Below, piece by piece: positions 1 through 13,363 of a stretch of DNA of 64,000 bases. Source of the DNA: an uncultured Clostridia bacterium. Its GTDB lineage: Bacteria; Bacillota; Clostridia; Oscillospirales; Ruminococcaceae. The notes under the pieces were generated by a model. That model searched no databases. It had not been told where the DNA came from and saw only the letters and a program-made list of their open reading frames with translations. Numbering within the stretch: position 1 is the stretch's first letter; the number at the start of each line of letters is the position of its first letter. Position numbers and translations under genes: made by a program. Location: positions 1 to 64,000 of the forward strand of contig CANQHA010000007.1 in assembly GCA_947623585.1 (NCBI GenBank). The letters are read 5' to 3'.

Positions 1-473
1 CAGAGGGCGGCTTCACCGACGGGCTCTCAATCGCCGGCGAGGAAGGCGTGGAGGCGGTCATCTCGTTCGATCCCGCCAACCGCGCACAGAACACCGCCGT
101 CTGGGCGAAGGCCGGCAAGCTCCTCGGCGTCCTCCACGACCTGAACGTCGAAACGGGCGCAGAGGTGGCAAGCGTCGCGTCCCTCCAACTCATCAAAGAC
201 GAGGAGGCCGCGAGCGAGGAGCCGCTCATCGCACAGGCCGGCAAGCTGGCAGATCTCGACGGCTTCTCCCTCGGAGAACTGACAGAGACGACGATCATCT
301 ACTACGACTTCAGCGGCTTCACATGGTCGCCGCAGGTCGAGGCGGGCAACGCCAAAGACCGCGACGACATCCTCGCGAAGCTGCGGGAGGAAGAAAACGA
401 GTTCTTCGACTGGCTCGAAGAATGGCTAAGGCAGAAGGAGGTGGGCGCGTATGACCGTATCAGTATTTATTAA
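1..473 (+). CDS. Phage tail tape-measure protein, C-terminal end (5' truncated by window edge)
   Basis: The reading frame is open from base 3, with no start codon needed: the first codons read EGGFTDGLSIAGEEG, so the GTG at 48 is not the real start. A glycine-rich stretch followed by SIAGEEGVEAVISFD is typical of the C-terminal end of tape-measure proteins of clostridial tailed phages, which set tail length and sit inside the tail tube. About 156 residues are visible, ending in an acidic, probably helical tail. The next gene (tail protein X-like) starts inside its last 23 bases, which fits a tightly coupled tail operon. The assignment rests on this short motif and on gene order (the tape measure precedes X and D in P2-like phages); the bulk of the protein lies outside the window. 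Confidence 0.75.
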   Translation, partial: EGGFTDGLSIAGEEGVEAVISFDPANRAQNTAVWAKAGKLLGVLHDLNVETGAEVASVASLQLIKDEEAASEEPLIAQAGKLADLDGFSLGELTETTIIYYDFSGFTWSPQVEAGNAKDRDDILAKLREEENEFFDWLEEWLRQKEVGAYDRISIY

Positions 474-675
474 CTACCGCACGCGAGTCGGCGACACGTT
501 CGACGCGCTCGCCCTTCAAGTCTACAACGACGAGAAGATGGCGCACCACATCATCGAGGCGAACCCGGACTTCTCTGACGTCATCATTTTCGAGGAGTCC
601 GTGCTCCTGAAGATCCCGATCTTCGAGGACACGGAGCTCCCTGAGACGCTGGCGCCGTGGAGGCGAGGGCTATGA
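451..675 (+). CDS. Tail protein X-like, LysM-type baseplate protein
   Basis: A 74-residue protein with one LysM-like fold: RVGDTFDALALQVYND, then HHIIEANPDF, then LLKIPIF near the end. This is the pattern of P2 gpX-type proteins (TxxGDTxDxIAxxxYG...IxEANP...V..IP), which join tail tube and baseplate. The ATG at 451 lies inside the end of the tape-measure gene and has GGAGG at 437-441. The stop TGA at 673-675 overlaps the ATG of the next gene. Order tape measure - X - D matches P2-like contractile-tail phages. Confidence 0.8.
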   Translation: MTVSVFINYRTRVGDTFDALALQVYNDEKMAHHIIEANPDFSDVIIFEESVLLKIPIFEDTELPETLAPWRRGL

Positions 676-1592
676 AACTTCTCTACGAAGGCATCGACAT
701 CGCCGGAAAGATCTCAATCAACCGCTGCGAGCATGAAACAAACGCGGAGAGGGAGTGCGACCGCCTCCTCCTCCGCTTCAATGACGCGGAGGGCCTCTGG
801 GACTTCTGGAAACCCGTCAGGGGCGAAAAGGTGCAGCTCGTCGACGGCGCCGATGACACCGGGATCATGTATATCACGAGCATCGAGCCGGAAAACGGGC
901 TTTTTACCCTACGGGCCATGTCAATGCCGCTGAGCGGCGAGACCGTGACGAGCCGGTCGTGGGAGGACGTGAGACTGCTCCAGATCGGGCAGGACATCGC
1001 GGGCAAGCACGGCCTGAAGTTTAAGACCTACGGCGTCACGGATCGCGTCTACAAGTACATCAAGCAGGAGCGCATGACGGACTTCGAGTTCCTTCACTGG
1101 CGCTGCCAGCTGGAGGGCTGCGCGATGATCATATACGACGGCGCGCTGATCCTCTACGACGAACACCAAACGGAAAGCCAAGCGGCGACCGACACGATCG
1201 AGGTCGGCGCCGACGGCTTTTTCCGATACAAAGACGAGTCCGCCACATCCTACGGATCGGCGGAAATCGTGAGCGGGAACTTCCGCGGCACCGCAAAGGA
1301 CGCCAACGGGAACGCCGGCCGGATCCTTCGCCCGAAGAAGGCGATCGACTGCACCAGCAACTCGGAGGCGCTGCGCTTCGCGAAGGGCCTGCTCAGACAG
1401 GCAAACAAAAACGCCCGGACGGGCACCTTCCGGCGGAAGCTCTCGCGAGCCTACGCCGCCGGCAGCGTCGTCAATCTCAAAACCGGGAAGGCGTCGAACT
1501 GGGACGGGAAGATCTTCATCACCCGCACCCGGCACGACTTCCTCACGGGCGAAACAAAGGTATTTTTTCGGAAACCGCTGGAGGGCTACTAA
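672..1592 (+). CDS. Late control protein D-like baseplate hub protein
   Basis: 306 residues. The ATG at 672 overlaps the previous stop (ATGA) and is preferred over an in-frame upstream start at 657. The sequence has the layout of gpD/gp27-like hub proteins: an N-terminal beta-rich domain with a typical electrophilic-domain feel (MKLLYEGIDIAGKISINRC), a middle part with QERMTDFEFLHWRCQLEG, which resembles the 'sdfeFlqrLaee.g' motif of the family, and a C-terminal part with GSVVNLKTGKASNWDGKIFI and a TRTRHDF stretch close to the end, like the usual VxHxxxxxG motif. It would form the hub at the tail tip above the spike, whose gene follows immediately. Confidence comes from the motif and from gene order. 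Confidence 0.75.
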   Translation: MKLLYEGIDIAGKISINRCEHETNAERECDRLLLRFNDAEGLWDFWKPVRGEKVQLVDGADDTGIMYITSIEPENGLFTLRAMSMPLSGETVTSRSWEDVRLLQIGQDIAGKHGLKFKTYGVTDRVYKYIKQERMTDFEFLHWRCQLEGCAMIIYDGALILYDEHQTESQAATDTIEVGADGFFRYKDESATSYGSAEIVSGNFRGTAKDANGNAGRILRPKKAIDCTSNSEALRFAKGLLRQANKNARTGTFRRKLSRAYAAGSVVNLKTGKASNWDGKIFITRTRHDFLTGETKVFFRKPLEGY

Positions 1593-1958
1593 ATGGCAGA
1601 AATTGAAAAGGGCAAAATCAGCACCATCGAAGGGCCGGCCGACGGCAACGGAAACAACACCCGCGCGAGAGTCGTCCCCGATCAGGCCGAGGGCGTCATC
1701 ACGAAGCCGCTGGTCATCCCGGCGCTGCTCCGGGGAGACGCCGGAAAGCTCGAAAAGGGGACGGAGGTCGTGTTCGCGGTTTTCCCGGATCAGACCGGGA
1801 TCATCCTCGACCGCGCCGACGGCGAGTGGTACGGCGTCATCTACGGGAACCTCCGCGTCACGAAGGACATCAAAACGGAGACCATCGAGAGCGTCAACAC
1901 GCACCGCCACGGCGGGATCTATCCCGGAAGCGGCACGACGGACATCCCGCAGGGATAA
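1593..1958 (+). CDS. Baseplate spike protein (gpV/gp45-like, OB-fold)
   Basis: 121 residues, starting on the base after the previous stop. The N-terminal half has the OB-fold pattern of puncturing spikes (RARVVPDQAEGVITKPLVIP, then LEKGTEVVFAVFP and DQTGIIL). The C-terminal part contains VNTHRHGG; in P2 gpV and related spikes an HxH motif near the tip binds iron, and HRH here is in the right place. The spike pierces the cell envelope on tail contraction. It sits between D and W/J/I genes, as in P2-like modules. Confidence 0.7.
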   Translation: MAEIEKGKISTIEGPADGNGNNTRARVVPDQAEGVITKPLVIPALLRGDAGKLEKGTEVVFAVFPDQTGIILDRADGEWYGVIYGNLRVTKDIKTETIESVNTHRHGGIYPGSGTTDIPQG

Positions 1959-1976
1959 CAGCAAAGGAGGCGGCCT

Positions 1977-2732
1977 ATGGGCACTATTGCAACCTTCCAG
2001 ACAACGAAGGGCACCAAAACATGGCAAGTCTCTCCGAGCAGGATCGTCGACCTCGACGGCTTCTCGACGAGCTTCGAGCTCAACGCCGAAAGCAACAAAC
2101 ACGTCGAGGGCTCTCCCCTGAGTAATCAGCGCGGCCTCAAAAAGAAGCCCCTCAGCTTCTCCAGCAACCTCGTCGACGCCGCAGGCGTCAACGTGCGGAG
2201 CGAGTTCGAGAGCTGGGAGTCGTGGATCGGTCTCGCCGGCATCATCAAGATCGGCGGGAAGCGCTTCGGCGCGTCGACGAAGTGGCTGCTCACAGCGGTC
2301 AAGGCGTCGAACGTCCTGATCGATAGCTCCGGCCGCTGGCGGAGGATGACGATCGGCTTCACCTTCGAGGAAAACGACGGCACGGACGGCGCCGGAGAGG
2401 TCGCTGCCGCGGTCAACAAGGCGAGATCCGCCGCAGAGGTCACAGCAAAGTCCGAGGACAAAGCGGCGAAGAAACCGGCGAACACGGCAGTCCAGCAGGC
2501 GCAGAAAACGCCGGCGGCATCCTCGGCGATCGCCCTCAATGACGTTGTGCAGTTCACGGGAGGGCCGCACTATATCAGCAGCACCGCGACGTCCTACAAA
2601 GTAAAGCCGAAAGCCGGGCCCGCAAAGGTAACGGCGATGGCAAAGGGCGCCCGACACCCCTACCACGTCATCCACACCGACAGCTCCTCGACCGTTTACG
2701 GCTGGGTAGACGCTTCACAGATCCACAAGTGA
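1977..2732 (+). CDS. Tail-associated protein with C-terminal bacterial SH3-like domain
   Basis: 251 residues, ATG at 1977 with AGGAGG just upstream. Two parts are visible. Residues 1 to about 140 (GTIATFQTTKGTKTWQVSP...) form an unrecognised beta-rich tail domain, perhaps of the gpU/initiator type given its place between spike and W. An Ala/Lys-rich linker (about 145-185) leads to a C-terminal SH3-like module (about 187-250): DVVQFTGGPHYISS, RHPYHVIHTDSSSTVYGWVD. The same module occurs three times in the endolysin at 10616-12523. In the lysin such modules bind cell wall, so the tail protein may grip peptidoglycan during infection. That role is inference. Confidence 0.55.
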   Translation: MGTIATFQTTKGTKTWQVSPSRIVDLDGFSTSFELNAESNKHVEGSPLSNQRGLKKKPLSFSSNLVDAAGVNVRSEFESWESWIGLAGIIKIGGKRFGASTKWLLTAVKASNVLIDSSGRWRRMTIGFTFEENDGTDGAGEVAAAVNKARSAAEVTAKSEDKAAKKPANTAVQQAQKTPAASSAIALNDVVQFTGGPHYISSTATSYKVKPKAGPAKVTAMAKGARHPYHVIHTDSSSTVYGWVDASQIHK

Positions 2733-2747
2733 CGGAGGGAGGATGCC

Positions 2748-3038
2748 ATGAAGAAAACAGGAAACGGAAACCCGGCGATCTGCGTCACGAACCTTCTGCG
2801 GATCTCCCGCGGGGAAAACCCCTACGAGAGGCTGAAGGGCGTGAGCTTCGCCAAAATCGACGCACCGGCCTCGCAGGCCAGCGCCGACATCATCGAGGAC
2901 GCCGAGTGGATGCTCGGCACCTACGAACCCCGCGCTCAGGTCGACAGCCTCACCATGACGGCAGACGACTCGGAGAGCGGGCAGTTCCGCATCTCGGCGG
3001 AAATCTCAACAGCAAAGGAGGCCGACGCCTATGAGTAA
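2748..3038 (+). CDS. Baseplate assembly protein W-like (gp25-like)
   Basis: 96 residues with GGAGG upstream. The pattern LLRISRGENPYERLKGVSF early and EWMLGTYEPRAQVDSL in the middle, then GQFRISAEIS, matches small W/gp25-type wedge proteins (LLxTxxGExPYxxxxG ... YEPRxxV). Its last eight bases overlap the J-like gene, which is the usual W-J order in contractile phages. Assignment by motif and order. Confidence 0.7.
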   Translation: MKKTGNGNPAICVTNLLRISRGENPYERLKGVSFAKIDAPASQASADIIEDAEWMLGTYEPRAQVDSLTMTADDSESGQFRISAEISTAKEADAYE

Positions 3039-4374
3039 TGAGTTCATAACAACCGACGCGAACCTGATCTATCAGGAGATCATCACCTCGCTGGAGTCGG
3101 GAGTCGACGAGCCTCTATACCCCGGCGACGAGCGCCGGATCTTCGGCGAGGCCCTCGTCGCGGTCATCGTGGCGGCCTATAACGCCATGAACGACGCGGC
3201 ACGACAGAAGATGCTCAGGTATGCCCGCGGGAGCGTTCTCGACGCTCTGGGCGAGCGCGTGGGCGTCGAAAGAATATCCCCGACGGAGTCGATGACGACG
3301 CTCCGCTTCTCAATGAACTCCACCGTCAGCGAGAACGTCATCATCCCCGAAGGCACGAGGGCCACGAGCGACAGCACGCGCTACTTCGCGACGACGGTCG
3401 CGGCGGTCATCGTCGCCGGGGAGACTTCGGTCGACGTCCCTGCTGCGAGCGTCGGAGGCGGGAAAGACTTCAACGGGATCCCGATCGGCGCGATCAACAC
3501 GATCGTCGACCCGGTCGTCTACGTCGACAACGTCACGAACCTCACGGCCACCGCCGGAGGCGACGACGAGGAGGACGACGACAGCCTCCGCGAGAGGATC
3601 AGGATCGCCCCGTCGAGGCTCTCGACAGCCGGCCCGATCAATGCCTACAAATACTGGGCGATGACGGCCGACTCCTCGATCGCCGACGTCTGCGTCAAGA
3701 GCGAGCGGGAAACGCTCACGAGGACGCTCACTGTCACCGGCGGGAAGATCTTCAAGGGCGGCGAGCATCTCCTCCCGGAGACGCTGATCGTCTACAAGCC
3801 AGACGGGCAGCCGGCAACGCCGGACACCGACTACAAGGCGACGTTCGAGGACGACCTGCTGACGATCACGCTGGAACACTCCGGGGCACTCTCCAGCGTG
3901 CAGACGGTCAAGATCGACGTCGACACGACGAACGACGGCATCGTCAAGATCATCCCGATCTGCGACGGCGGCGTCATCCCGGACGAGACGATCCTCGCGA
4001 AAGTGCTCGCGGCGTGCAACGCCTCGGAGGTCAGACCGCTCACGGATCTCGTGAAGGTCGAGGCCCCGCAGGTGCAGGAGTACGACGTCGAGCTCACCTA
4101 CTACACAACACCGGCCGAAGAAAGCGCCTGCATCAACACCATCGAGGCAGCAGGCGGCGCGATCGACCAGTACAACGCATGGCAGAGCTCCACGCTCGGC
4201 CGGCATATCAACCCCGACAAGCTGCGGGCCCTCATCCTCGCACCGACTGAGGAGGGAGCCGTCGGCGCCACGCGCGTCGTGATCACAAGTCCCGTGTTCA
4301 CGGAGCTCTCGGACGTGACGATCGCAAAATTCAGCGGTCGCAAAACCATCCGGCATGAGGTCGTGAGGGCGTAA
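3031..4374 (+). CDS. Baseplate J-like protein (Mu gp47/P2 gpJ family)
   Basis: 447 residues. The N-terminus (NLIYQEIITSLESG), RYARGSVLDALGERVGVERI and the DDSLRERIRIAPSRLSTAGP stretch are the recognisable core of baseplate J proteins, which form the wedge ring. The usual polyserine-free family length is about 300-450, so it looks complete. The C-terminal third holds repeated acidic, beta-rich segments. It overlaps W upstream and shares one base with the I-like gene downstream (TAATG). Confidence 0.85.
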   Translation: MSNEFITTDANLIYQEIITSLESGVDEPLYPGDERRIFGEALVAVIVAAYNAMNDAARQKMLRYARGSVLDALGERVGVERISPTESMTTLRFSMNSTVSENVIIPEGTRATSDSTRYFATTVAAVIVAGETSVDVPAASVGGGKDFNGIPIGAINTIVDPVVYVDNVTNLTATAGGDDEEDDDSLRERIRIAPSRLSTAGPINAYKYWAMTADSSIADVCVKSERETLTRTLTVTGGKIFKGGEHLLPETLIVYKPDGQPATPDTDYKATFEDDLLTITLEHSGALSSVQTVKIDVDTTNDGIVKIIPICDGGVIPDETILAKVLAACNASEVRPLTDLVKVEAPQVQEYDVELTYYTTPAEESACINTIEAAGGAIDQYNAWQSSTLGRHINPDKLRALILAPTEEGAVGATRVVITSPVFTELSDVTIAKFSGRKTIRHEVVRA

Positions 4375-5579
4375 TGCGAGTAAAGACCGCGGACGTCCTC
4401 AAACTCGTCCCGGAATTTATGCGGGACGACGGAGCGGTAAAGGGACTGGCCGCCGCCGTCAACTCGCTCATCCGCGCGCCCGGCACCCGGATCGACACCG
4501 TCCGCATCTGGGACAAGATCGACGAGCTCACCGATGAGCAGCTCGACGAGCTCGCCTACGAGCTCGACATCGACTGGTACAGCTCTGCGCTCCCGATCGA
4601 GATCAAGCGGAAGCTCGTCAAACACTCCGACCTCACTCACAGCCGGCGCGGAACGCGCTGGGCGGTCGAGGATCTGATCTCCTCGTACTTCGAGGGCTCG
4701 GCGGTCGTCGAGTGGTACGAGCCGGAAGCCCTGACGAACCTCCCGTTCCACTTCGCGATCTGCACGACAGACCGCGACGTCAATGACGCGGAGATCGTCG
4801 ACTTCATGAGGCTCGCGAGCCTCGCGATGCCAGTCAGGTGCAGGATCGACGGCGTCTACTTCGCGGACAAGTACGGCAGCGTGATCGTCGTGCAACACGT
4901 CGACAGCGCTCACTTCTTCCGCCCGAAGAAATGCGGCACAATCCCGCGCCAGTCTACGCTCGGCGGGCTCGTGGACGACTCCGGCGTCGTCGCAGGAGAA
5001 GGATCCGGCGGTCACAAGTTCGACGCGCCCAACGCCGGCACGAAGGTCTCCGGCACATATCCGAGGCCCGGAACGCTCGGCTCCATCACGGACGCCGGAG
5101 CGGTCGCAGGCGAGGGATCTCTCCCGTCCATCTTTGAGCTGGGACACTCCGGCGACGAGATCGCCGGCACGTTCCCGCGGAGGGCGACGATCGGAGAGAC
5201 GACAACCGCCGGAACAGAAGCAGGACAACAGACGGCCGGCTCGCACTTCAACCCGAAGATCGCGGGCACGCTGCCGCGGGCCGGTACTCTCGGCGGCGTG
5301 ATCCCCGGAAACGGAGCGCAGGCCGGAGAAGCGACCGACCCGTCGTTCTTCAAGCCTCGCAAAGCTGAGGGAACCCTCGGCGGAGCGATACCCGGCAGCA
5401 GTACAGAAGCCGGGGAAAGCACGGCGACGTCCTACTTCGCACCAAAACAGGCCGGAACGGAGCAAAAGGCAGAGGGAACGCTCGGATCGGTACAGACCGC
5501 GGAAGCGGCAACCGTCGAGACGAACGACGCCCGGAGCTTCGGCTGCATCAAATGCGGCACCGAAAGGTGTGGCAAATAA
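4374..5579 (+). CDS. Tail protein I-like with a long repeat-bearing C-terminal extension
   Basis: 401 residues. Residues 1 to about 175 match P2 gpI-type baseplate proteins: LKLVPEFMRDDGAVKGLAAA at the start and a gpI-like RRGTRWAVEDLISSYF followed by VVEWYEPEAL. The usual family length is about 180-220. Here the remaining half is a run of six imperfect repeats of about 33-39 residues, each with a (PRxG)TLGG/TIGE turn followed by AGE/AGQ and an S-x-F/FxPxxAGT segment; starts of four PRxxTLG turns lie at 4944, 5061, 5175 and 5274. The extension probably forms a beta-fibre or an attachment platform for the tail-tip genes that follow; that is inference. It ends with a Cys pair (CIKCGTERCGK). Confidence 0.75.
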   Translation: MRVKTADVLKLVPEFMRDDGAVKGLAAAVNSLIRAPGTRIDTVRIWDKIDELTDEQLDELAYELDIDWYSSALPIEIKRKLVKHSDLTHSRRGTRWAVEDLISSYFEGSAVVEWYEPEALTNLPFHFAICTTDRDVNDAEIVDFMRLASLAMPVRCRIDGVYFADKYGSVIVVQHVDSAHFFRPKKCGTIPRQSTLGGLVDDSGVVAGEGSGGHKFDAPNAGTKVSGTYPRPGTLGSITDAGAVAGEGSLPSIFELGHSGDEIAGTFPRRATIGETTTAGTEAGQQTAGSHFNPKIAGTLPRAGTLGGVIPGNGAQAGEATDPSFFKPRKAEGTLGGAIPGSSTEAGESTATSYFAPKQAGTEQKAEGTLGSVQTAEAATVETNDARSFGCIKCGTERCGK

Positions 5580-5600
5580 ATCCGTAAAGGAGGAAAGACG

Positions 5601-5912
5601 ATGGCATTTTACACAACGAACTTTCTGGAAAAGCGCCGGAGATGGTGGATGAGAAACATCTGGCAGGTGCAGGCAGCCGCCGGCGGCACATGGTACACCG
5701 GCGACATCCAGAAAAAGCAACTGGAGGGCGACAAGATCGTCATCCACGCGGTTTTCCCCGCGCTGACGTCGCTCGCGACTACGGTCACGAGCCTCCGCGT
5801 GCTCGACATCGACGGGCAGGTCGCGGCCACGAAAACCGAAAACATCAAAAAGGCAGTCGGTCAGGGCATCCTGATCAAGCTGGAGCTGCCGATCATCGAG
5901 CAGGAGGTGTAA
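5601..5912 (+). CDS. Small tail-tip protein, unknown function
   Basis: 103 residues, ATG at 5601 with AAAGGAGG upstream. I do not recognise the family. The N-terminus is basic and aromatic (KRRRWWMRNIW), followed by a beta-rich body (GTWYTGDIQKKQLEGDK, SLRVLDIDGQVAATKTE) without signal peptide or membrane segment. Its place between the I-like gene and the DGR target suggests a tail-fibre or baseplate accessory role. Strong coding signs: good ribosome site, tight spacing (4 bases) to the next gene. Confidence 0.6.
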   Translation: MAFYTTNFLEKRRRWWMRNIWQVQAAAGGTWYTGDIQKKQLEGDKIVIHAVFPALTSLATTVTSLRVLDIDGQVAATKTENIKKAVGQGILIKLELPIIEQEV

Positions 5913-5916
5913 ACAA

Positions 5917-6330
5917 ATGGCTCTGAAGTACAAGCCCACAATCTGGAAGGACGACGTCCCGGACGTGCAAACCGGCACAGACCTCGACGCCGCTCACTTT
6001 AACAACAACGAGCGCGCAACCTTCGAGGCGCTCGCCCTCGCCGATCTGAACGCCGTGTTCCACAGGTACGCGATGGACGAGGTCGCGCAGGTCGCCGCGG
6101 CGAAGGCGATGGTCATGATGGCGCCCGGCCTCCAGTCGGTCGCGCTGCCCGCCGGCGCTCTCCGTAACACTACGGACTACGACGTCGAGGCGACGGTCGT
6201 CTCCGCTGAGGGCGGCGAGGTCGAGAAGGTAACGATCGGCACGAAGCAGGCCAACGGCTTCAAGGTTTCCTACGAGGGAAGCGCCGAGTCTGCGACGATC
6301 GCGTTCAAAGTGACGGGAGGGATGCTCTAA
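5917..6330 (+). CDS. Putative tail-fibre/tail-tip protein, unknown family
   Basis: 137 residues. The start KYKPTIWKDDVPDVQTGT followed by NNNERATFE resembles the N-terminal 60 residues of many phage fibre proteins that describe a WKDxxxxxGTxxxAxxFNxxE pattern; the C-terminal part (YDVEATVVSAEGGEVEKVT, KVSYEGSAESATIAFKVTGG) is beta-rich. It could join the baseplate to the diversified protein downstream. The stop TAA at 6328-6330 shares its last base with the ATG of the small gene that follows. Confidence 0.55.
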   Translation: MALKYKPTIWKDDVPDVQTGTDLDAAHFNNNERATFEALALADLNAVFHRYAMDEVAQVAAAKAMVMMAPGLQSVALPAGALRNTTDYDVEATVVSAEGGEVEKVTIGTKQANGFKVSYEGSAESATIAFKVTGGML

Positions 6331-6497
6331 TGAACGGCCCGAACGTCATCATCAAAACCGACGAGCAGAAGGCTCACGAGAACAAGGTGCTCGCGTCCTA
6401 CGGCGTGAGACCTGAGCAGGCAACCAAAGAGCAGCGCGAGTGCGCTCGCGAAATCAGCCGGACAACGGCAGAAATTGAAAGGAGGATCAGAAAATGA
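6330..6497 (+). CDS. Very small phage protein, 55 residues, unknown
   Basis: ATG at 6330 shares a base with the previous stop (TAATG) and the TGA at 6495-6497 overlaps the next ATG (ATGA), so the frame fills the gap between two real genes exactly. The product is hydrophilic and probably helical (NVIIKTDEQKAHENKVLAS, RECAREISRTTAEIERRIRK). Similar short charged proteins follow tail-fibre genes in clostridial phages and plugs such as XkdX-type proteins occur there, but I cannot assign it. Confidence 0.6.
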   Translation: MNGPNVIIKTDEQKAHENKVLASYGVRPEQATKEQRECAREISRTTAEIERRIRK

Positions 6498-6805
6498 TCA
6501 TCATCGAGAAAAACGAAGGGAAGAAAGTGGCCTACGAGGTCACGGGCAACAAGATCACATTCGGCGACGACGAGATCACCCTCAACCTCGCGAAATACGA
6601 GCGCGACGAGGAGGTGCAAGTCGACATCTGCCGGAACGATGAGAACATCCTGATCGCAGGGCCCTCGACGTTCTTCGTGGCGAACGTCATCATCCCCGCC
6701 CGCAAATACACGGAGGAGCACGAGCCCGTCCCCTTCAGCATGGAGAACGTGACGCTCGTCCTCTGGGCGCTGATCGACCGCGTCGACGACAGAGAGGAGG
6801 ACTAA
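6494..6805 (+). CDS. Small phage protein, unknown function
   Basis: 103 residues; ATG at 6494 overlaps the preceding stop and AGGAGG lies at about 6480-6485. No recognised motif, signal peptide or membrane segment; acidic overall with beta-strand pattern (KVAYEVTGNKITFGDDEITL) and a hydrophobic C-terminal helix (VTLVLWALIDRV). It ends four bases before the DGR target gene, so it is co-translated with it; a fibre-assembly or chaperone role for the diversified protein is possible but speculative. Confidence 0.55.
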   Translation: MIIIEKNEGKKVAYEVTGNKITFGDDEITLNLAKYERDEEVQVDICRNDENILIAGPSTFFVANVIIPARKYTEEHEPVPFSMENVTLVLWALIDRVDDREED

Positions 6806-6808
6806 GGC

Positions 6809-7948
6809 ATGGCACAGGTAAGCAAGACACCCGTCAGCGACTTCGACGCCGCCGTCCGCCTTCTGAGCGGCGGGACGAACGTCGCGCTCTACAATGACCT
6901 CGGCCTGCCGGGCATCTACGTCATCAAGCCGAAGGGCAACCTCTCGGACGTCATCACGACGGAGAGCATGGGCGTCCATCCGGCCTTCCGCGTGGACGGT
7001 CACGAGATCGACGCCTTCTACATGGGCAAATACCTCGCCGCGGTCTATATGGGCCGCGCGCTCTCCCTCCCGCTTCAGGATCCGAGCGCCTATCAGGTGG
7101 ACGCCTCCGACAAGGGCGACGCCCCGAACACGAACGTCAACTTCGATAACGCGAAGCTCTGGTGCGAGGCGAACGGCCCCGGCTTCCACCTTCCCACCAT
7201 CGCCGAGTATGCGTGGATCGCGCTGCTCGCCCGCAAAAATGAGACCATGCCGCACGGGAACACCAACTACGGCGCATCCAGCGACGCGGCCTTCGAGAAG
7301 GGCATCGGCTCCACATACGGATCCGACGGCAGAGTAAACCGCACGCTCACCGGCTCCGGCCCCGTCTCGTGGAACGACAACGGGAAGCCCGACGGGATCA
7401 GCGACATCTGCGGAAACGTCTGGGAGTGGCAGGGCGGCTACCGCATCGTCGAGGGCGAGCTCCAGTTCTTCGCGGACAATGACGCCGCGATGCAGTGGCA
7501 GCAGAACGCCGAGAGCTCCCTCTGGAAGGCTATGCTCCCGGACGGCACTCTCGTCGCACCCGGCACGGCCGGCACCCTCAAATGGGACTACACGGCCGAC
7601 CCCGGCACCGAAAGCGCCGCGAAGGCGTTCCGCCTGAACACGACGATCCAGTTCAAGCAGACCGTCGAGGCGCCCTACGGCGGCCAGACCATGCAGACCC
7701 TCACCGCCGCGCCCGGCGTCAATATCCCGGAGCGCCTGATCGCCCTCGGCATCATGCCCGAAAGCGGAAAGGCCAACTACGGAGGCGACTGGGCGTACAT
7801 GAGGAACATGGGCGAGCGGCTCGGCTTCCGCGGGGGCTACTGGGGCGACGGCGCGTACGCTGGTGTGTTCGGCCTCCTCGGCGCCTATCCCCGCTCCCCC
7901 GTCGACGCGAGCTTCGGCTTCCGGCCCGCTTTTATTCCGACACCCTGA
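6809..7948 (+). CDS. DGR target (variable) protein, FGE-sulfatase/C-type-lectin fold, likely receptor-binding tail tip
   Basis: 379 residues. The second half carries the formylglycine-generating-enzyme (FGE) signature: FHLPTIAEYAWIALLA at about 134-150 and CGNVWEW at 201-207, then a C-terminal LGFRGG...GFRPAF block. FGE/C-type-lectin folds are the usual scaffold of DGR variable proteins (for example BPP-1 Mtd and the Treponema TvpA). Residues 337-374 are encoded by the variable repeat (7816-7931); the 14 residues 340, 344, 346, 347, 350, 355, 357, 359, 360, 364, 366, 367, 368 and 369 differ from what the template would encode, all through adenine changes. The protein follows tail-tip genes and precedes avd, so it most likely displays a variable ligand-binding surface on the phage tail. 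No catalytic role is implied: FGE-like DGR proteins are binders. Confidence 0.93.
   Translation: MAQVSKTPVSDFDAAVRLLSGGTNVALYNDLGLPGIYVIKPKGNLSDVITTESMGVHPAFRVDGHEIDAFYMGKYLAAVYMGRALSLPLQDPSAYQVDASDKGDAPNTNVNFDNAKLWCEANGPGFHLPTIAEYAWIALLARKNETMPHGNTNYGASSDAAFEKGIGSTYGSDGRVNRTLTGSGPVSWNDNGKPDGISDICGNVWEWQGGYRIVEGELQFFADNDAAMQWQQNAESSLWKAMLPDGTLVAPGTAGTLKWDYTADPGTESAAKAFRLNTTIQFKQTVEAPYGGQTMQTLTAAPGVNIPERLIALGIMPESGKANYGGDWAYMRNMGERLGFRGGYWGDGAYAGVFGLLGAYPRSPVDASFGFRPAFIPTP
7816..7931 (+). repeat. DGR variable repeat (VR)
   Basis: 116 bp at the 3' end of the target gene, aligned without gaps to the template repeat exactly 600 bp downstream (8416-8531). It differs at 19 positions; each differing position is A in the template (template coordinates 8426, 8438, 8444, 8445, 8447, 8456, 8471, 8472, 8477, 8478, 8483, 8484, 8486, 8498, 8499, 8504, 8507, 8511, 8513). 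The 91 non-adenine positions are all identical. The last 18 bp, TCGGCTTCCGGCCCGCT-type and adenine-free, would correspond to the initiation-of-mutagenic-homing (IMH) end. Confidence 0.97.
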
Positions 7949-7972
7949 GCTCTGCGCTCTGGAAATCTGAAA

Positions 7973-7996
7973 GAGGCCCGGCTCTGTCCGGGCCTC
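7973..7996 (+). promoter_or_regulatory. Perfect 9-bp inverted repeat just after the DGR target gene
   Basis: GAGGCCCGG (7973-7981), a 6-base loop and CCGGGCCTC (7988-7996) form a perfect hairpin 42 bases after the end of the variable repeat. No T-run follows, so it is a poor rho-independent terminator. In the Bordetella BPP-1 DGR a hairpin/cruciform just downstream of VR promotes retrohoming; this one is further away and has a larger loop, so a similar role is inference. Confidence 0.6.
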
Positions 7997-8016
7997 CCTA
8001 TTTCAGGAGGTAACAC

Positions 8017-8385
8017 ATGGCAGACCTAATCCTACAACAGAAGATCTCCCGCCTGATCCTCAAAAGCTCCGCCCGGATCGCGAACTTCCGAAAGCCGGAA
8101 AAGTTCACGCTCGGCGTCGCTATACAGGAGACACAGCTGAAGATGCTGAGGCTGGCGATCATGGCAAACAAGTCGCGGACGTCAAAGCGGCAGCACTTCC
8201 AGTTCGAGCTCGACACGGAGCTCGAAGTGCATCGCGCTCTCATCGACGTCGCGGTCGCGCCGGAGACGAAAGTCATCAGCCCCGGCTTGCATCGCGACTG
8301 GTCGGCGGAGCTCGACGAGATCGGCAGACTCCTCGGCAAGTGGATCCAGTCCACAACGGCGAAGCCTCCGGCCTCGCCTGAGTGA
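8017..8385 (+). CDS. avd: DGR accessory variability determinant (Avd-like)
   Basis: 122 residues, ATG at 8017 with CAGGAGG upstream. The basic, helical sequence (LILKSSARIANFRKPEKFTL, LKMLRLAIMANKSRTSKRQH, ELDTELEVHRALIDVAV, DEIGRLLGKWIQ) fits the small four-helix-bundle Avd/bAvd family. Avd forms a pentamer that binds the reverse transcriptase and template RNA and is needed for adenine mutagenesis. Its position between variable gene and template repeat is the BPP-1 order (target - avd - TR - RT). It has no other obvious function. Confidence 0.88.
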   Translation: MADLILQQKISRLILKSSARIANFRKPEKFTLGVAIQETQLKMLRLAIMANKSRTSKRQHFQFELDTELEVHRALIDVAVAPETKVISPGLHRDWSAELDEIGRLLGKWIQSTTAKPPASPE

Positions 8386-8801
8386 TAGACATGGGGGATG
8401 CGCCGAGAAAAAGTCGCGGCTCGGCATCCGCGGGGGCAACTGGAACAACGGCGCGAACGCTGGTGTGTTCAACCTCAACGGCAACAATCCCCGCTCCAAC
8501 GTCAACACGAACATCGGCTTCCGGCCCGCTTCGGCCTCAATCGGTGAAAGCTCAAAACCTACGGGCGCGAGCGCCTCAGAGGTCAAAGGGGCGCATCTCC
8601 CGGCGCACAGCGCCAAAGAATGAAGCCGCGGGGCGAGGAGGTCAAAAGCCTCAGAGGATCCGCGGCAAAACGCGCAGGCTATACGCGCCCCTCACGGGGC
8701 ACAGGCCCGGAAGTCGCCGGCATGGCAACCCGGAAAGACGTCGGGCGGAAGGACTGTCACACGCGGCCATTTTTTATTAACAACAGGAGGAGGCGGCAAC
8801 A
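8386..8801 (+). ncRNA. DGR template RNA region (template repeat plus 3' spacer)
   Basis: 416 bases without a convincing gene between avd and the reverse transcriptase. It contains the template repeat (8416-8531) and a 270-base GC-rich spacer up to the RT start. In studied DGRs the template is transcribed as part of a non-coding RNA and the spacer 3' of TR is needed for priming and Avd-RT binding. The spacer holds repeated segments (CCTCAGAGG at about 8573 and 8648; AGGTCAAA nearby) that suggest folding. Exact RNA ends cannot be read from sequence; a frame open through this region is low-complexity and lacks support. Confidence 0.75.
8416..8531 (+). repeat. DGR template repeat (TR)
   Basis: 116 bp matching the variable repeat except at adenines. 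It has 25 adenines; 19 are changed in VR and 6 unchanged. Read in the VR frame it would encode a string rich in Asn (AAC/AAT codons: N-W-N-N-G-A-N, N-L-N-G-N-N) as is typical of DGR templates. AAC/AAT, ATC and ACG codons mutated at A can never become stop codons, so the template gives wide amino-acid diversity without truncation. Confidence 0.97.
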
Positions 8802-9902
8802 ATGGAAAAGCCCACAATTTTCGAGCGGATTTACTCATGGGAGAACCTGCTCCGCGCGTACCACGAAGCCGGGAAAGAGAAATGGTTCCGGGACGACGTC
8901 GCGCACTTCTCGGCGCATCTGGAGGAGAACCTGATCGAGATCCAGAACGAGCTCATCTGGCGCACCTACACCGTCGGGAGATACCGCGAGTTCTACGTCT
9001 ACGAGCCGAAGAAGCGCCTCATCATGGCGCTCAGCTTCAAGGATCGCGTCGTGCAGTGGGCGATCTATTTGCAGCTCAATCCGATTTTTGACAATCAATT
9101 TATTTTTCACTCCTACGGCTGCCGCGTCGGCAAAGGCACGTCGCGCGCGGTCGATAGGCTCCAGTATTGGATGCAGGCCGTCGAACGGAAGCCGGGCGAG
9201 TGGTACTATCTGAAGCTCGACGTCTCGAAGTATTTCTACCGCGTGGATCACGACGTTCTCATGCGGATCCTGCGGCAGAAGTTCCCGGACGAGGAGGGCC
9301 TTCTCTGGCTCATGGAGCGGATCATCAACTGCGACCACACGCCGTTCGGACTTCCGCCGGGAGTCGAGGCCGACAGCATCCCACCCTCGGAGAGGCTTTT
9401 CGAGGTCGGGATGCCGATCGGAAACCTGACGTCTCAGCTCCTCGCGAACGTCTGCCTCAACGAGCTCGACCAGTTCGTGAAGCACACCCTCAAAGTCCAC
9501 TACTTCGAGCGCCTCATGGACGACATGATCGCCCTGCTCCCGACGAAGGAGGAGGCGAACGAAGTCAGGGACGAGATCGAGGGCTTCCTGAACCGCGAGC
9601 TCCACCTCGACCTAAACGCAAAGACAACGATCAACAAGGTCAAGAACGGGATCACCTTCGTCGGCTACCAAGTCCACACGGACTGGAGAAAAATCAAGCG
9701 GAAAACGCTGCGAAAAATGAAAGCCCGGATCCGATACATCGAAAAGGAGTACGCGGCCGGCCTCATCGACCTCGAAGCGGTCGAGAGCACGATGCAGAGC
9801 TACTACGGACTCATGAAGCACTGCAACAGCTACGGGCTCCGGCGATGGATCGAGCGGAACGTCGTGTTCCAAAGGGCGGAAACGGAGGATTTAACAGAAT
9901 GA
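8802..9902 (+). CDS. DGR-type reverse transcriptase
   Basis: 366 residues, ATG at 8802 with AGGAGG upstream. Motifs in order: RT1-2 block (RLIMALSFKDRVVQWAIY, then HSYGCRVGKGTSRAV), motif A LKLDVSKYF with Asp140, motif B GMPIGNLTSQLLANV with the DGR hallmark IGxxxSQ at 206-212 (group II intron and retron RTs usually have QG), motif C LMDDM with Asp240/241, and a short thumb (TFVGYQVHTDW...). Length and lack of a maturase domain fit DGR RTs. It copies the template RNA with error at adenines to rewrite VR. Its stop overlaps the next ATG (ATGA), tying its expression to the late lysis genes. Confidence 0.96.
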   Translation: MEKPTIFERIYSWENLLRAYHEAGKEKWFRDDVAHFSAHLEENLIEIQNELIWRTYTVGRYREFYVYEPKKRLIMALSFKDRVVQWAIYLQLNPIFDNQFIFHSYGCRVGKGTSRAVDRLQYWMQAVERKPGEWYYLKLDVSKYFYRVDHDVLMRILRQKFPDEEGLLWLMERIINCDHTPFGLPPGVEADSIPPSERLFEVGMPIGNLTSQLLANVCLNELDQFVKHTLKVHYFERLMDDMIALLPTKEEANEVRDEIEGFLNRELHLDLNAKTTINKVKNGITFVGYQVHTDWRKIKRKTLRKMKARIRYIEKEYAAGLIDLEAVESTMQSYYGLMKHCNSYGLRRWIERNVVFQRAETEDLTE

Positions 9903-10300
9903 TCGAAATCTCACTTTACCAGCTCGTCGTCTTTATGGGCGTACCCTCTGCCGTCACCGGCTTCTGCTTCTGGCTGCTCCAACGGCGCATCACGAAGCGA
10001 GACGCCGAACGCGCGAAGCAGGAGGAGGAACGCCGGCAAAGGGAAAAGAACGAGGCGGACGCCCGCCGGAAGGCGCTGGAAGAACGCGAACAGGCGCACG
10101 AGGATCTGGAGCTGCTCATCGTGCAGAGCACGAGCGCCGCGATCGCGCTCGCGGAGGCCACAGCGAGGGCCGTGCAGAGGATCCCCGACGCACACTGCAA
10201 CGGGGATATGCACGCCGCGCTGGACTATGCCGCGACCGTGAAGCACGCGCAGAAGGAGTTCCTCCAGAAACAGGGCATCGCCGCGATCTTCGACTCGTAA
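9899..10300 (+). CDS. Membrane-anchored coiled-coil phage protein
   Basis: 133 residues, ATG at 9899 overlapping the RT stop. One N-terminal membrane segment (LYQLVVFMGVPSAVTGFCFWLL, about residues 5-27) is followed by a highly charged helix (about 30-75, RRITKRDAERAKQEEERRQR...), then a helical C-terminal domain. The layout resembles small phage lysis-cassette proteins that position at the membrane; I cannot assign a named family. Placed directly before another membrane protein and the endolysin. Confidence 0.6.
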   Translation: MIEISLYQLVVFMGVPSAVTGFCFWLLQRRITKRDAERAKQEEERRQREKNEADARRKALEEREQAHEDLELLIVQSTSAAIALAEATARAVQRIPDAHCNGDMHAALDYAATVKHAQKEFLQKQGIAAIFDS

Positions 10301-10314
10301 AGGAGGCGGGCGAC

Positions 10315-10632
10315 GTGAAAGGAAAACACGAAAACCAGAAGAAGGGCTTCGGCACGATGAACCTGATCCTCATCGTCATCGCCGTCGCCCTTTTAGCGTT
10401 CACGCTGAAAATGATCGCAGTTTTCGAGGCGACCGGGATGATCCCGGACACCCTCGTCACCTGCGTCTTTGCCGCGCTCGGAGGCGAGTGCGGCGCGATG
10501 GCGTGGATCAAAACGACCAAAGAGCGCCGGCAGGATCGGGAGTGGCAGAAGCAGGACGAAGCCGAAGCCAGACGCCGGGAAGCGCTCGAAAGACAGAGAC
10601 AGAAGGAGGAGAACGATGAGTCTCAGAGGTAA
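10315..10632 (+). CDS. Holin-like small membrane protein with charged tail
   Basis: 105 residues, GTG start at 10315 with AAAGGAGG at 10299-10306. Two hydrophobic segments (LILIVIAVALLAFTLKMIAV, then a shorter one around TLVTCVFAALGGECGAMAW) and a basic/acidic coiled C-terminus (KERRQDREWQKQDEAEARRR). Its last 17 bases overlap the endolysin start, the usual holin-endolysin arrangement, so a holin or regulator role is likely but not proven. No signal of a specific holin family. Confidence 0.6.
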   Translation: MKGKHENQKKGFGTMNLILIVIAVALLAFTLKMIAVFEATGMIPDTLVTCVFAALGGECGAMAWIKTTKERRQDREWQKQDEAEARRREALERQRQKEENDESQR

Positions 10633-12523
10633 AAACAACGCCGAGAAAATCTGGAATTTTCTCACCGACAACGGGCTCACGGCGCACGGCGCCGCGGGCC
10701 TCATGGGAAATTTGCAGGCTGAGAGCGGCCTCGTGCCGAACAACCTGCAAAACACCTACGAGAAATCGCTGGGAATGACGGACGCGGCCTACACCGCCGC
10801 CGTCGACTCCGGCAGCTATGCGAACTTCGTCCGCGACTCGGCCGGCTACGGTCTCGCACAGTGGACGTACTGGTCACGGAAGGAGGCGCTCCTGAACTAC
10901 GCGAGGAGCCGCGGCGCCTCGATCGGCGATCTGGAGATGCAGCTCGGCTTCCTGCTCAAAGAGCTCGCCGAGGACTTCGCCGGCGTGCTCGCGACGCTGA
11001 AAAAGACCGGGAGCATCCTCGAAGCCTCGAACGCCGTGCTCCTGAACTTCGAGCGCCCTGCAAATCAGGGCACCAGCGTCCAAAACACCCGCGCGGGCTA
11101 CGGTCAGACCTTCTTCGACCAGTTCGCGCCAAAGACTACCACCAGCAACAAAGGAGGAACCACAATGTCCGGGAAAATCACGACCGCGGCAGAGCTCGCT
11201 CAGAGGGCCGAGAACGCTGCGAAGAACTACAAGACCCTCTACGTCATGGGCTGCTTCGGCGCGCCTATGAATGACGCCAACAAAAAGAGGTACACGACGA
11301 ACCACTCCTACAACAAAGACCCCGCGAGGACGAAGATGATCAACGCTGCGAGCGCCGACACCTTCGGCTTCGACTGCGTCTGCTTCATCAAGGGCCTGCT
11401 CTGGGGATGGTGCGGCGACGCCTCGAAGCAGTACGGCGGCGCCGGCTATGCCATAAACGGCGTGCCGGACATCGGCGCTGACAGCATGATCCGCGTCTGC
11501 TCCGGCGTCTCCACCGACTTCTCGAAGATAGAGATCGGCGAGGCTGTCTGGATGGAGGGACACATCGGCCTCTATATCGGCGGCGGCCTCGCGGTCGAGT
11601 GTACGCCGAAATGGTCGAACAACGTCCAGATCACGGCCTGCAACAACACCCGGAGCGGCTACAACACCCGCAACTGGACGAAGCACGGGAAGCTCCCCTA
11701 CGTCACCTACACGGGCAAGAGCGAGGATGTGAAAACGGCCGGCAAGTCGACCGGCGGATCCTCCGGCAACACCGGCGGGAGCACCGGCGGCAACACCGGC
11801 AGCGGATCCTCCTCACTGAAGTTCTCCGTCGGCCAGATCGTCAACTTCTCCGGCGGCTACCACTACACCAGCGCGAACGCGAGCAGCGGCCCGGCCGTGA
11901 AGGCCAGCAGGGCGAAGATCACCGACGTCTATCCGAGCGGAAAGCACCCGTACCACGCCCGCGCGGTCAACGAGGCCGGCAGCTTCATCGGCGGCGTCTA
12001 CGGCTGGGTAGACGAGAAAACGCTCTCCGCGATCTCCACCGGCAGCAGCTCCGGCGGATCCACCGGCGGCAACACCTCGAAGGAGCTGAAGGTCGGCGAC
12101 ATCGTCAACTTCACCGGCTCCGTCCACTACGCCAGCGAGGACGCGACCACCGGCCCCGCGGCGAAGCCCGGCAAGGCGAAGATCACGAAGATCGTCAAGG
12201 GCGGGAAGCACCCCTATCACATCATCCACGTCGACAGCTCGTCCAACGTCTACGGCTGGGTAGACGCTGCGGACATCGGAGCGGCCGATCCTGCTGCCGA
12301 AAGCTGGACGCCGGCCGTCGGGGACATCGTCAACTTCACCGGCTCCGTCCACTACGCGAACGCCAACGCGGCGACCGGGCCCTCCTGCAAGCCGGGCAAG
12401 GCTAAGATCACGCAGATCTACCTCCCCAACAAAAGCAAGCACCCGTATCACCTGAAGGCGATCAGCGGCTCCTCCTCCACCGTCTACGGCTGGGTAGACC
12501 GCGACGCCTTCACGAAGTCATGA
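10616..12523 (+). CDS. Modular phage endolysin: tail-lysozyme-like + NlpC/P60-like domain + three SH3-like modules
   Basis: 635 residues. The ATG at 10616 has AGGAGG at about 10604-10609; an upstream in-frame start is not needed. Domains: residues about 5-165 resemble phage tail-lysozyme/glucosaminidase (GLMGNLQAESGL with likely catalytic Glu, YGLAQWTYWSRKEALL); about 195-375 an NlpC/P60- or CHAP-like amidase/peptidase with FGFDCVCF (Cys254) and GHIGLYIG (His316); a Gly/Ser/Thr linker; then three SH3-like modules (about 400-460, 480-550, 565-633), each ending in VYGWVD. The enzyme cleaves host wall at lysis. An in-frame ATG at 11165 with AAAGGAGG 7 bases upstream may yield a shorter form. Confidence 0.85.
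   Translation: MSLRGKNNAEKIWNFLTDNGLTAHGAAGLMGNLQAESGLVPNNLQNTYEKSLGMTDAAYTAAVDSGSYANFVRDSAGYGLAQWTYWSRKEALLNYARSRGASIGDLEMQLGFLLKELAEDFAGVLATLKKTGSILEASNAVLLNFERPANQGTSVQNTRAGYGQTFFDQFAPKTTTSNKGGTTMSGKITTAAELAQRAENAAKNYKTLYVMGCFGAPMNDANKKRYTTNHSYNKDPARTKMINAASADTFGFDCVCFIKGLLWGWCGDASKQYGGAGYAINGVPDIGADSMIRVCSGVSTDFSKIEIGEAVWMEGHIGLYIGGGLAVECTPKWSNNVQITACNNTRSGYNTRNWTKHGKLPYVTYTGKSEDVKTAGKSTGGSSGNTGGSTGGNTGSGSSSLKFSVGQIVNFSGGYHYTSANASSGPAVKASRAKITDVYPSGKHPYHARAVNEAGSFIGGVYGWVDEKTLSAISTGSSSGGSTGGNTSKELKVGDIVNFTGSVHYASEDATTGPAAKPGKAKITKIVKGGKHPYHIIHVDSSSNVYGWVDAADIGAADPAAESWTPAVGDIVNFTGSVHYANANAATGPSCKPGKAKITQIYLPNKSKHPYHLKAISGSSSTVYGWVDRDAFTKS
11150..11167 (+). promoter_or_regulatory. Internal ribosome site and in-frame ATG inside the endolysin gene
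   Basis: AAAGGAGG (11150-11157), a 7-base spacer, then ATG at 11165-11167 in the endolysin frame (residue 184). It sits exactly at the junction between lysozyme-like and NlpC/P60-like domains, after a Thr-rich linker (KTTTSNKGGT). A 452-residue product with peptidase plus three wall-binding modules could be made. Several Gram-positive phage lysins make such secondary products; here it is inference from a perfect site. Confidence 0.6.
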
Positions 12524-12707: not shown

Positions 12708-13097
12708 ATGAACGTCGTCAACTACATCGTCAACAACTGGGACTTCGTCCTTCTGATCGTCGCCGCTCTGGCGGCGGTCATCTTCTTCGCCTTCAAGGGC
12801 AACAAGTCCGTCGTGATGAAAATGCTCTACGCGCTCGTCACGGAGGCGGAGAAGGATCTCGGCAGCGGCACCGGCTCTCTGAAGCTGGCGCAGGTCGTCA
12901 CGGCGATCTACCCGAAACTCCCGGCGATCCTCAAAGCCTTCATCTCGGAGAAAACCCTGACGAAGTGGATCGAGGACGCCCTCACGGCCGCGAAGGATAA
13001 CTGGCAGAAGAACGCCAACATCGCCGGCTATATTGCAGGGCCCGCAGAGAGCGCGAAAAACGACGCACAGAGCGTCGAAAGCTCGAAGGCCGAGTAA
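12708..13097 (+). CDS. Holin-like phage protein (N-terminal membrane segment, helical C-domain)
   Basis: 129 residues, ATG at 12708 with GAAGGAGTG just upstream; it is the real start of a longer open frame. One strong membrane helix (WDFVLLIVAALAAVIFFAF, about 10-28) followed by an amphipathic domain (MKMLYALVTEAEKDLGSGTG, LPAILKAFISEKTLTKWIED). This resembles LLH-type/phi-LC3-like phage holins of Firmicutes, where the sentence 'VTEAEKxxGxGxGxxK' is typical. It is the last gene before the prophage's right-end terminator. Confidence 0.7.
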   Translation: MNVVNYIVNNWDFVLLIVAALAAVIFFAFKGNKSVVMKMLYALVTEAEKDLGSGTGSLKLAQVVTAIYPKLPAILKAFISEKTLTKWIEDALTAAKDNWQKNANIAGYIAGPAESAKNDAQSVESSKAE

Positions 13098-13117
13098 ATC
13101 ATCACCCAAAGAAAAGA

Positions 13118-13157
13118 GACCCGCACAGCGCCTTCTGGACGCCGTGCGGGCCTTTTT
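13118..13157 (+). terminator. Terminator at the right end of the prophage
   Basis: CCCGCAC (13120-13126) pairs with GTGCGGG (13144-13150) and is followed by CCTTTTTGTTTTTT. It closes the late operon about 20 bases after the last phage gene. Confidence 0.85.
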
Positions 13158-13257
13158 GTTTTTTCTGCCGTTCTTCACCCTACGACAGACAAGGGCAGGA
13201 GCATCACGAACGCCGTGCTGCATACAAAGAGCCGCGCGTGTTCGTTTACTCCTCTAA

Positions 13258-13333
13258 TGGTGGAGCATACGGGATTCGAACCCGTGACCTCCACACTGCC
13301 AGTGTGGCGCGCTTCCAACTGCGCTAATACCCC
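13258..13333 (-). tRNA. tRNA-Ala(GGC), CCA encoded; probable prophage attachment site
   Basis: Read on the minus strand: 7-bp acceptor GGGGTAT/ATGCTCC (with G-T pairs), D arm GCGC...GCGC, anticodon stem CCACA/TGTGG with loop CTGGCAG giving anticodon GGC (Ala, codon GCC), T arm ACGGG-TTCGAAT-CCCGT, discriminator A and an encoded CCA (13258-13260). The 3' end faces the prophage 160 bases away. Tailed phages often integrate in the 3' half of tRNA genes and restore it, so the attR is most likely in 13258-13300; the left copy is outside the window. Confidence 0.93.
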
Positions 13334-13363
13334 GCAAATGTTCGGCTTTTGCCGACATCTGCT

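What the first reader, a model, noticed from the sequence alone, without database searches (positions are those of the whole stretch)
6809..9902. Complete diversity-generating retroelement in a prophage tail-tip module
Target gene with FGE/C-type-lectin fold, avd-like gene, template repeat and DGR reverse transcriptase follow one another on the plus strand in the BPP-1 order. VR and TR align without gaps at a constant 600-bp offset and differ only at template adenines. The system would rewrite the phage's receptor-binding face during its life in the host, a tropism-switching machine in a gut-type clostridium.
Basis: partly seen in the sequence, partly recalled or inferred. Interest (0 to 1): 0.95.

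Follow-up and report, generated by a model that had tools for sequence, protein, structure and literature searches.

The report
Ordinary phage tail-diversifying retroelement (DGR)
A bacterial prophage carries a standard, apparently complete diversity-generating retroelement that rewrites the end of a tail-module protein; it closely resembles one already described in a gut Faecalibacterium phage, so it is a good but ordinary example.

Summary
VR 7816-7931 and TR 8416-8531 align over 116 nt without gaps, 600 nt apart, and differ at 19 positions, all template adenines (p about 6e-17). The target is a full-length homologue of the solved DGR variable protein TaqVP, Avd matches Pfam bAvd, and the RT has the DGR motif IGNLTSQ and matches the BPP-1 DGR RT best among solved structures. 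Gene order is that of BPP-1. The closest named relative found, Faecalibacterium phage FP_Lagaffe, has the same order and a published DGR. Of 80 IMG/VR relatives, 61 have such TR/VR pairs; of 13 pairs of them with identical TRs, 11 have different VRs, so the family is active in nature. Activity of this copy is inferred. Small oddities: RT motif 5 is LMDD (79 YMDD, 1 YVDD in those 80); the hairpin after VR has a 6-nt loop, not GRNA. A 99%-identical prophage lies in another host species beside tmRNA, not tRNA-Ala; only the last 20 bases of its VR are available. New member of a known kind.

The parts
6809..7948 (+). target (variable protein), 379 aa, FGE-subtype C-type-lectin family
   Evidence: Pfam FGE-sulfatase E 2.9e-8, over its cut-off; match to 5VF4 (TaqVP, a DGR variable protein) E 8e-55, residues 14-376 (identity of 5VF4 from PMC6328139); phrog_2889 E 3e-105
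7816..7931 (+). variable repeat (VR), in codons 336-375 of 379 of the target
   Evidence: gapless repeat of TR, all 19 differences at TR adenines
7914..7931 (+). adenine-free invariant 3' end of VR, position of an IMH (label by analogy)
   Evidence: identical in TR and VR; IMH role inferred from BPP-1
7973..7996 (+). G+C-rich hairpin 41 nt after VR: 9-bp stem, 6-nt loop CTCTGT
   Evidence: 43 of 61 IMG/VR relatives with a VR have a perfect-stem hairpin within 90 nt after it; DGR role by analogy to BPP-1, could also be a terminator
8017..8385 (+). avd, accessory variability determinant, 122 aa
   Evidence: Pfam bAvd E 1.3e-17, over its cut-off; PHROG 'Avd protein of DGR' E 5e-29; NCBIfam DivGenRetAVD 72 bits, below its cut-off of 80
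8416..8531 (+). template repeat (TR)
   Evidence: identical in L012
8532..8801 (+). TR-RT spacer, probably the 3' part of the template RNA
   Evidence: between TR and RT; a single 1-base indel in 270 nt against the 99% identical prophage L012; no Rfam match at E <= 0.1 in 6500-10500; RNA role inferred
8802..9902 (+). DGR reverse transcriptase, 366 aa
   Evidence: RVT_1 E 1e-22; 8UB7 E 6e-39; tree
9417..9437 (+). RT motif 4 IGNLTSQ (DGR SQ motif)
   Evidence: motif described in PMC3521204 (passages)
9513..9524 (+). RT motif 5 reading LMDD where the 80 IMG/VR relatives read YMDD or YVDD
3031..5579 (+). tail neighbours: baseplate J (3031-4374) and tail P2 I-like (4374-5579)
10619..12523 (+). tail lysozyme/endolysin downstream of the DGR
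   Evidence: Pfam Phage_lysozyme2 E 8e-32, PHROG endolysin E 3e-126

Best explanation
A complete diversity-generating retroelement of the BPP-1 / FP_Lagaffe kind in the tail module of a temperate prophage. The TR-spacer region is transcribed, the Avd-RT complex copies it into cDNA with random bases opposite template adenines, and the cDNA replaces VR at the 3' end of the target gene, guided by the invariant 3' end of VR and the hairpin after it. This diversifies up to 14 residues of a C-type-lectin ligand face of a tail protein, most likely one that binds the host surface. Shown: anatomy, adenine restriction of past changes, homology of all three proteins, VR diversity in close relatives. Inferred: activity of this copy, the homing steps, receptor binding and tropism switching.
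For: 19 of 19 VR/TR differences at adenines; no such run for C, G or T; adenines only at codon positions 1-2, no reachable stops; Avd, RT and target family matches; BPP-1 gene order and the same order in FP_Lagaffe, RT 69% identical; A-only TR/VR pairs in 10 of 14 relative loci and in 61 of the 80 relatives (two loci in both); 11 of 13 (not independent) relative pairs with identical TR differ at 10-17 VR adenine positions while spacer+RT is 93.5-99.9% identical; dN below dS for RT against L010 (0.15/0.72) and Lagaffe (0.25/1.56); for Lagaffe-like phages a published alignment of 18 cognate genomes shows adenine-linked variation at the VRs (PMC11792537, passages).
Against: No direct sign of activity of this copy: no second full VR was found. 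L010 and L011, 97% identical overall, have identical VRs and TRs, and L112/L113 do too (100% identical around it). RT motif 5 has Leu where 80 of 80 IMG/VR relatives have Tyr, which might lower activity. In a published study no read-level signal was seen for the Lagaffe DGR in the limited data there (PMC11792537, passages). 19 of 80 relatives gave no A-only pair. NCBIfam's Avd model stays below its cut-off. The prophage is cut by the contig start, and a search with the Lagaffe large terminase found nothing in the own genome at E <= 1e-20 (no positive control), so its completeness is unknown.
Confidence: 0.95

Rival explanations
1. A decayed or idle DGR: VR was diversified in the past, but the RT (LMDD) or the prophage is no longer active.
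For: Leu in place of Tyr in motif 5 seen only in the window and L012; prophage completeness unknown; no second full VR to compare.
Against: RT, Avd and TR are intact and nearly identical in a second host species (1 nonsynonymous and 4 synonymous codon changes in RT; 6 nt changes in avd; TR identical). That copy has A where the window VR has T at template-adenine position 7913, and its contig ends just before the next template adenine, 7911. This is what varied VRs would give, but it is one base at a contig end, and those 20 bases equal the TR, so an assembly mix-up with TR is possible. Relatives with Asn or Thr at the same place (L024, L025) still have A-only VR/TR differences.
Confidence: 0.2
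2. The target is a prophage-encoded surface or adhesion protein of the lysogen, not a virion receptor-binding protein.
For: The assignment is by homology only, and no virion proteomics is available.
Against: It lies between baseplate genes and the tail lysozyme. FP_Lagaffe's homologue is annotated as BPP-1 Mtd-like and reported as an FGE-superfamily target like Mtd in PMC5883640 (passages).
Confidence: 0.07
3. Chance repeat or gene duplication with ordinary divergence.
For: None found.
Against: All 19 differences at adenines, p 6e-17; no comparable run for other bases.
Confidence: 0.001

Closest known systems
DGR of Faecalibacterium phage FP_Lagaffe (MG711461; PMC5883640, PMC11792537)
   Same: Same gene order (baseplate J, P2 I, small genes, target, avd, RT, two small genes, endolysin; TR between avd and RT), RT 69% identical, A-only TR/VR, hairpin with a loop over 4 nt 45 nt after VR
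   Different: Target 39% identical; RT motif 5 YMDD; two VRs reported for the Lagaffe DGR (PMC11792537 passages), one found here; IS30-type integrase in Lagaffe, integrase of this prophage not found; window prophage lies beside tRNA-Ala
Bordetella phage BPP-1 DGR (NC_005357)
   Same: Order mtd(VR)-avd-TR-brt, SQ motif, changes mostly at A, hairpin after VR
   Different: RT far diverged (134 bits); BPP-1 VR/TR also differ at 4 non-A positions in the annotated 134-nt repeats, 18 of 22 at A; GAAA tetraloop 4 nt from VR instead of a 6-nt loop 41 nt away
Thermus aquaticus TaqVP DGR (5VF4; PMC6328139)
   Same: Target homologous over nearly its whole length, VR at the C-terminus, where the paper puts TaqVP's VR
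   Different: 9 variable residues in TaqVP (passage), 14 adenine-bearing codons here

Membership tests
Diversity-generating retroelement | TR and VR near-identical, differences at TR adenines | tested here: met
   19 of 19
Diversity-generating retroelement | RT of the DGR clade with (I/V/L)GxxxSQ motif | tested here: met
   IGNLTSQ; best solved match is the BPP-1 Brt chain; on the BPP-1 side of the tree (inner forks partly weak)
Diversity-generating retroelement | Accessory protein (Avd) near TR | tested here: met
   Pfam bAvd over cut-off, PHROG Avd; NCBIfam Avd below its cut-off
Diversity-generating retroelement | Target with VR at its 3' end, C-type-lectin or Ig-like scaffold | tested here: met
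   VR ends 17 nt before the end of the ORF, stop codon included; TaqVP homology
Diversity-generating retroelement | Mutagenic homing demonstrated (VR changes, TR constant) | tested here: inconclusive
   Not for this copy (one base at a contig end). In relatives 11 of 13 identical-TR pairs differ in VR
DGR RT motif-5 consensus (a frequency, not a defining trait) | YxDD, Tyr replaced by Phe in 14% (PMC3521204 passages) | tested here: not met
   LMDD; both aspartates present
Phage DGR hairpin of the BPP-1 type | 7-10 bp stem, GRNA tetraloop, 4-34 bp from VR (PMC3240598 passages) | tested here: not met
   9-bp stem but a 6-nt loop, 41 nt away

The most novel reading that the evidence does not exclude
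A phage lineage, present in two host species, carries an active DGR whose RT has Leu for the motif-5 Tyr and whose target hairpin lacks the GRNA tetraloop. This would show that both features thought close to fixed are dispensable, and the Leu might alter adenine infidelity.
Probability: 0.2. Interest if true: 0.45.

Novelty: new member of a known kind. Interest (0 to 1): 0.25.

Why it matters
It adds one clean member to a large, described group of gut-phage DGRs. Its modest extra value is a natural RT variant in the catalytic motif and a near-identical prophage in two host species, in which DGR-driven host adaptation could be examined.

Tried and rejected
Chance repeat: rejected. A second VR elsewhere in the own genome: none at E <= 0.1. 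Rfam match in 6500-10500: none at E <= 0.1. IMG/VR pattern for near-identical TR/VR with N at adenines: 0 stretches. Rest of the prophage in the L012 genome (G149), to read its VR: queries 1-5600 and 5601-8790 gave no near-identical match upstream of 7914, only short matches of 78-83%. Family-wide DNA search for further near-identical copies: 2 of 395 genomes matched at E <= 1e-30, the own genome and G048 at 70%. Motif 5 by a first regular expression gave four false non-Tyr readings and one false YRDD; alignment gave 79 YMDD and 1 YVDD of 80. That VRs of relatives differ nowhere but at adenines when their TRs are identical holds by construction of my scan, so only the number of adenine differences against the background identity is used as evidence; the 13 pairs share loci and are not independent. 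The hairpin scan asks for perfect stems and misses imperfect ones such as L010's, seen. The RT tree left out two Pfam RVT_1 matches (L041, L043) that did not reach E 1e-8 against the window RT. L022 also gave runs at an offset of 201 near its contig end with 0-2 mismatches, an ordinary repeat that I did not count. Structure prediction was not run, since the sequence match to 5VF4 was nearly full-length.
Full report
Observation. The window holds three + strand ORFs, 6809-7948, 8017-8385 and 8802-9902. A gapless direct repeat of 116 nt lies at 7816-7931 and 8416-8531, 600 nt apart. The copies differ at 19 positions, and each has A in the downstream copy; that copy has 25 A in 116 nt, p 6e-17.

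Proteins. The target matches Pfam FGE-sulfatase (E 2.9e-8) and, over residues 14-376, the chain 5VF4 (E 8e-55). 5VF4 is TaqVP, a solved DGR variable protein with the FGE subtype of the C-type-lectin fold, whose VR is at its C-terminus (PMC6328139, passages), as here. The second ORF matches Pfam bAvd above its cut-off and the PHROG Avd family, but is below the NCBIfam Avd cut-off (72 against 80 bits). The RT's best solved match is 8UB7 (E 6e-39), ahead of group II RTs at E 2e-19; 8UB7 matches BPP-1 Brt over 328 of 328 residues. The RT has IGNLTSQ in motif 4, the SQ motif described as characteristic of DGR RTs (PMC3521204, passages). In a tree of 21 RTs it groups with L012, L010, L011, FP_Lagaffe and L021 (100/99) and lies with BPP-1 Brt on the side opposite three RTs with a QGxxxSP-type motif (100/100; that this motif marks group II-like RTs is recalled). 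Four of 18 inner forks are open and the place of BPP-1 is weak.

Setting. Upstream are baseplate J and P2 I-like tail genes, downstream a tail lysozyme. Comparison with L012 puts the right end of the prophage at a tRNA-Ala(GGC), 13258-13333. The contig begins at window base 1, so the head genes are not in view, and a search of the own genome with the Lagaffe large terminase found nothing (no positive control).

Relatives. FP_Lagaffe has the same order with a 69% identical RT, and its DGR is published (PMC5883640 and PMC11792537, passages). Of 149 related genomes, 6 including the own carry an RT at E <= 1e-40. Of these 80, 61 have an A-only TR/VR pair of 60 nt or more with at least 3 differences, VR upstream of TR at offsets of 543 to 723. 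In one search, 10 of 14 relative loci examined had such a pair; L021, L026, L029 and L030 had none, and the L021 contig ends at about the 5' edge of its TR.

Activity in the family. Among the 61, 13 pairs of loci have identical TRs over the compared 71-119 nt. In 11 of them the VRs differ at 10 to 17 template-adenine positions, while spacer plus RT is 93.5-99.9% identical; L136 and L141 differ at 2 of 1400 bases there but at 15 of 22 VR adenine positions. In 2 of 13 (L010/L011 and L112/L113) the VRs are identical. L010 and L011 differ by about 3% elsewhere, a result against constant turnover. The pairs share loci and are not independent.

This copy. L012, from the MAG Lapin-024 bin47, carries the prophage at 99.1% identity over 5377 bases, with TR identical, RT with 1 nonsynonymous and 4 synonymous codon changes, and one indel in the 270-nt spacer. 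Its contig ends inside VR at the place of window base 7912, just before template adenine 7911, and has A at 7913 where the window VR has T. This fits varied VRs, but it is one base at a contig end, and these 20 bases equal the TR, so a mix-up in assembly is possible. Activity of this copy therefore remains inferred.

Oddities. RT motif 5 is LMDD in the window and L012; of 80 IMG/VR relatives 79 have YMDD and 1 YVDD. The DiGReF survey gives Tyr, replaced by Phe in 14% (PMC3521204, passages). L024 and L025 have Asn and Thr and still show A-only VR/TR differences. A paper search for LMDD with the DGR term found no paper. The hairpin 41 nt after VR has a 9-bp stem and a 6-nt loop. Of 61 relatives with a VR, 15 have a perfect-stem hairpin with a GRNA loop, 28 another loop, 18 no perfect stem; among the nearer loci L010-L106, 17 of 29 have a perfect stem, 14 of the 17 with a 6-8 nt loop and none with GRNA, and all 15 GRNA loops lie in L107-L147. 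BPP-1-type hairpins were described with GRNA tetraloops 4-34 bp from VR (PMC3240598, passages). So the longer loop is a trait of this branch, not of this element alone.

Verdict. A survey of over 30,000 DGRs found phage clades that seem to diversify attachment proteins and found DGRs broadly active (PMC8144416, passages).

Noticed in passing
window 12900-13345; L012 4988-5694: The same prophage (99%) sits in two host species: rpoB region 69-73% nt identical, a host gene 73% on the same contig as the prophage. It abuts tRNA-Ala(GGC) in the window but tmRNA in L012; the shared phage end runs to 13265, through the 8 bases TGGTGGAG at the 3' end of both genes. The own genome's tmRNA shows no match to this window in L062, which has 175 bases beyond the gene's 3' end. 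A Lagaffe prophage 98% identical in Blautia hansenii is reported in PMC5883640 (passage).
   Followed up: partly
window 9513-9524: RT catalytic motif LMDD instead of YMDD, shared with L012 alone among the RTs examined.
   Followed up: partly
window 7973-7996: Post-VR hairpin with a 6-nt loop; near relatives also have mostly 6-8 nt loops and no GRNA.
   Followed up: partly
L020 (G149:C2:46000-58000): The L012 host genome has a second DGR, TR/VR with 21 of 21 differences at adenines and an offset of 732.
   Followed up: no
L042 (G000:C22:1329-1766): A second RT match in the own genome, with a QGxxxSP-type motif, holds an in-frame TGA.
   Followed up: no
L012 start; L004/L021 (G048:C24 end): One related contig ends inside VR and another at about the edge of TR, suggesting that assemblies break at DGR repeats.
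   Followed up: no
window 11770-12500 and 2622-2713: Repeated segments in the endolysin ORF, also similar to a stretch of the tail gene at 1977-2732.
   Followed up: no
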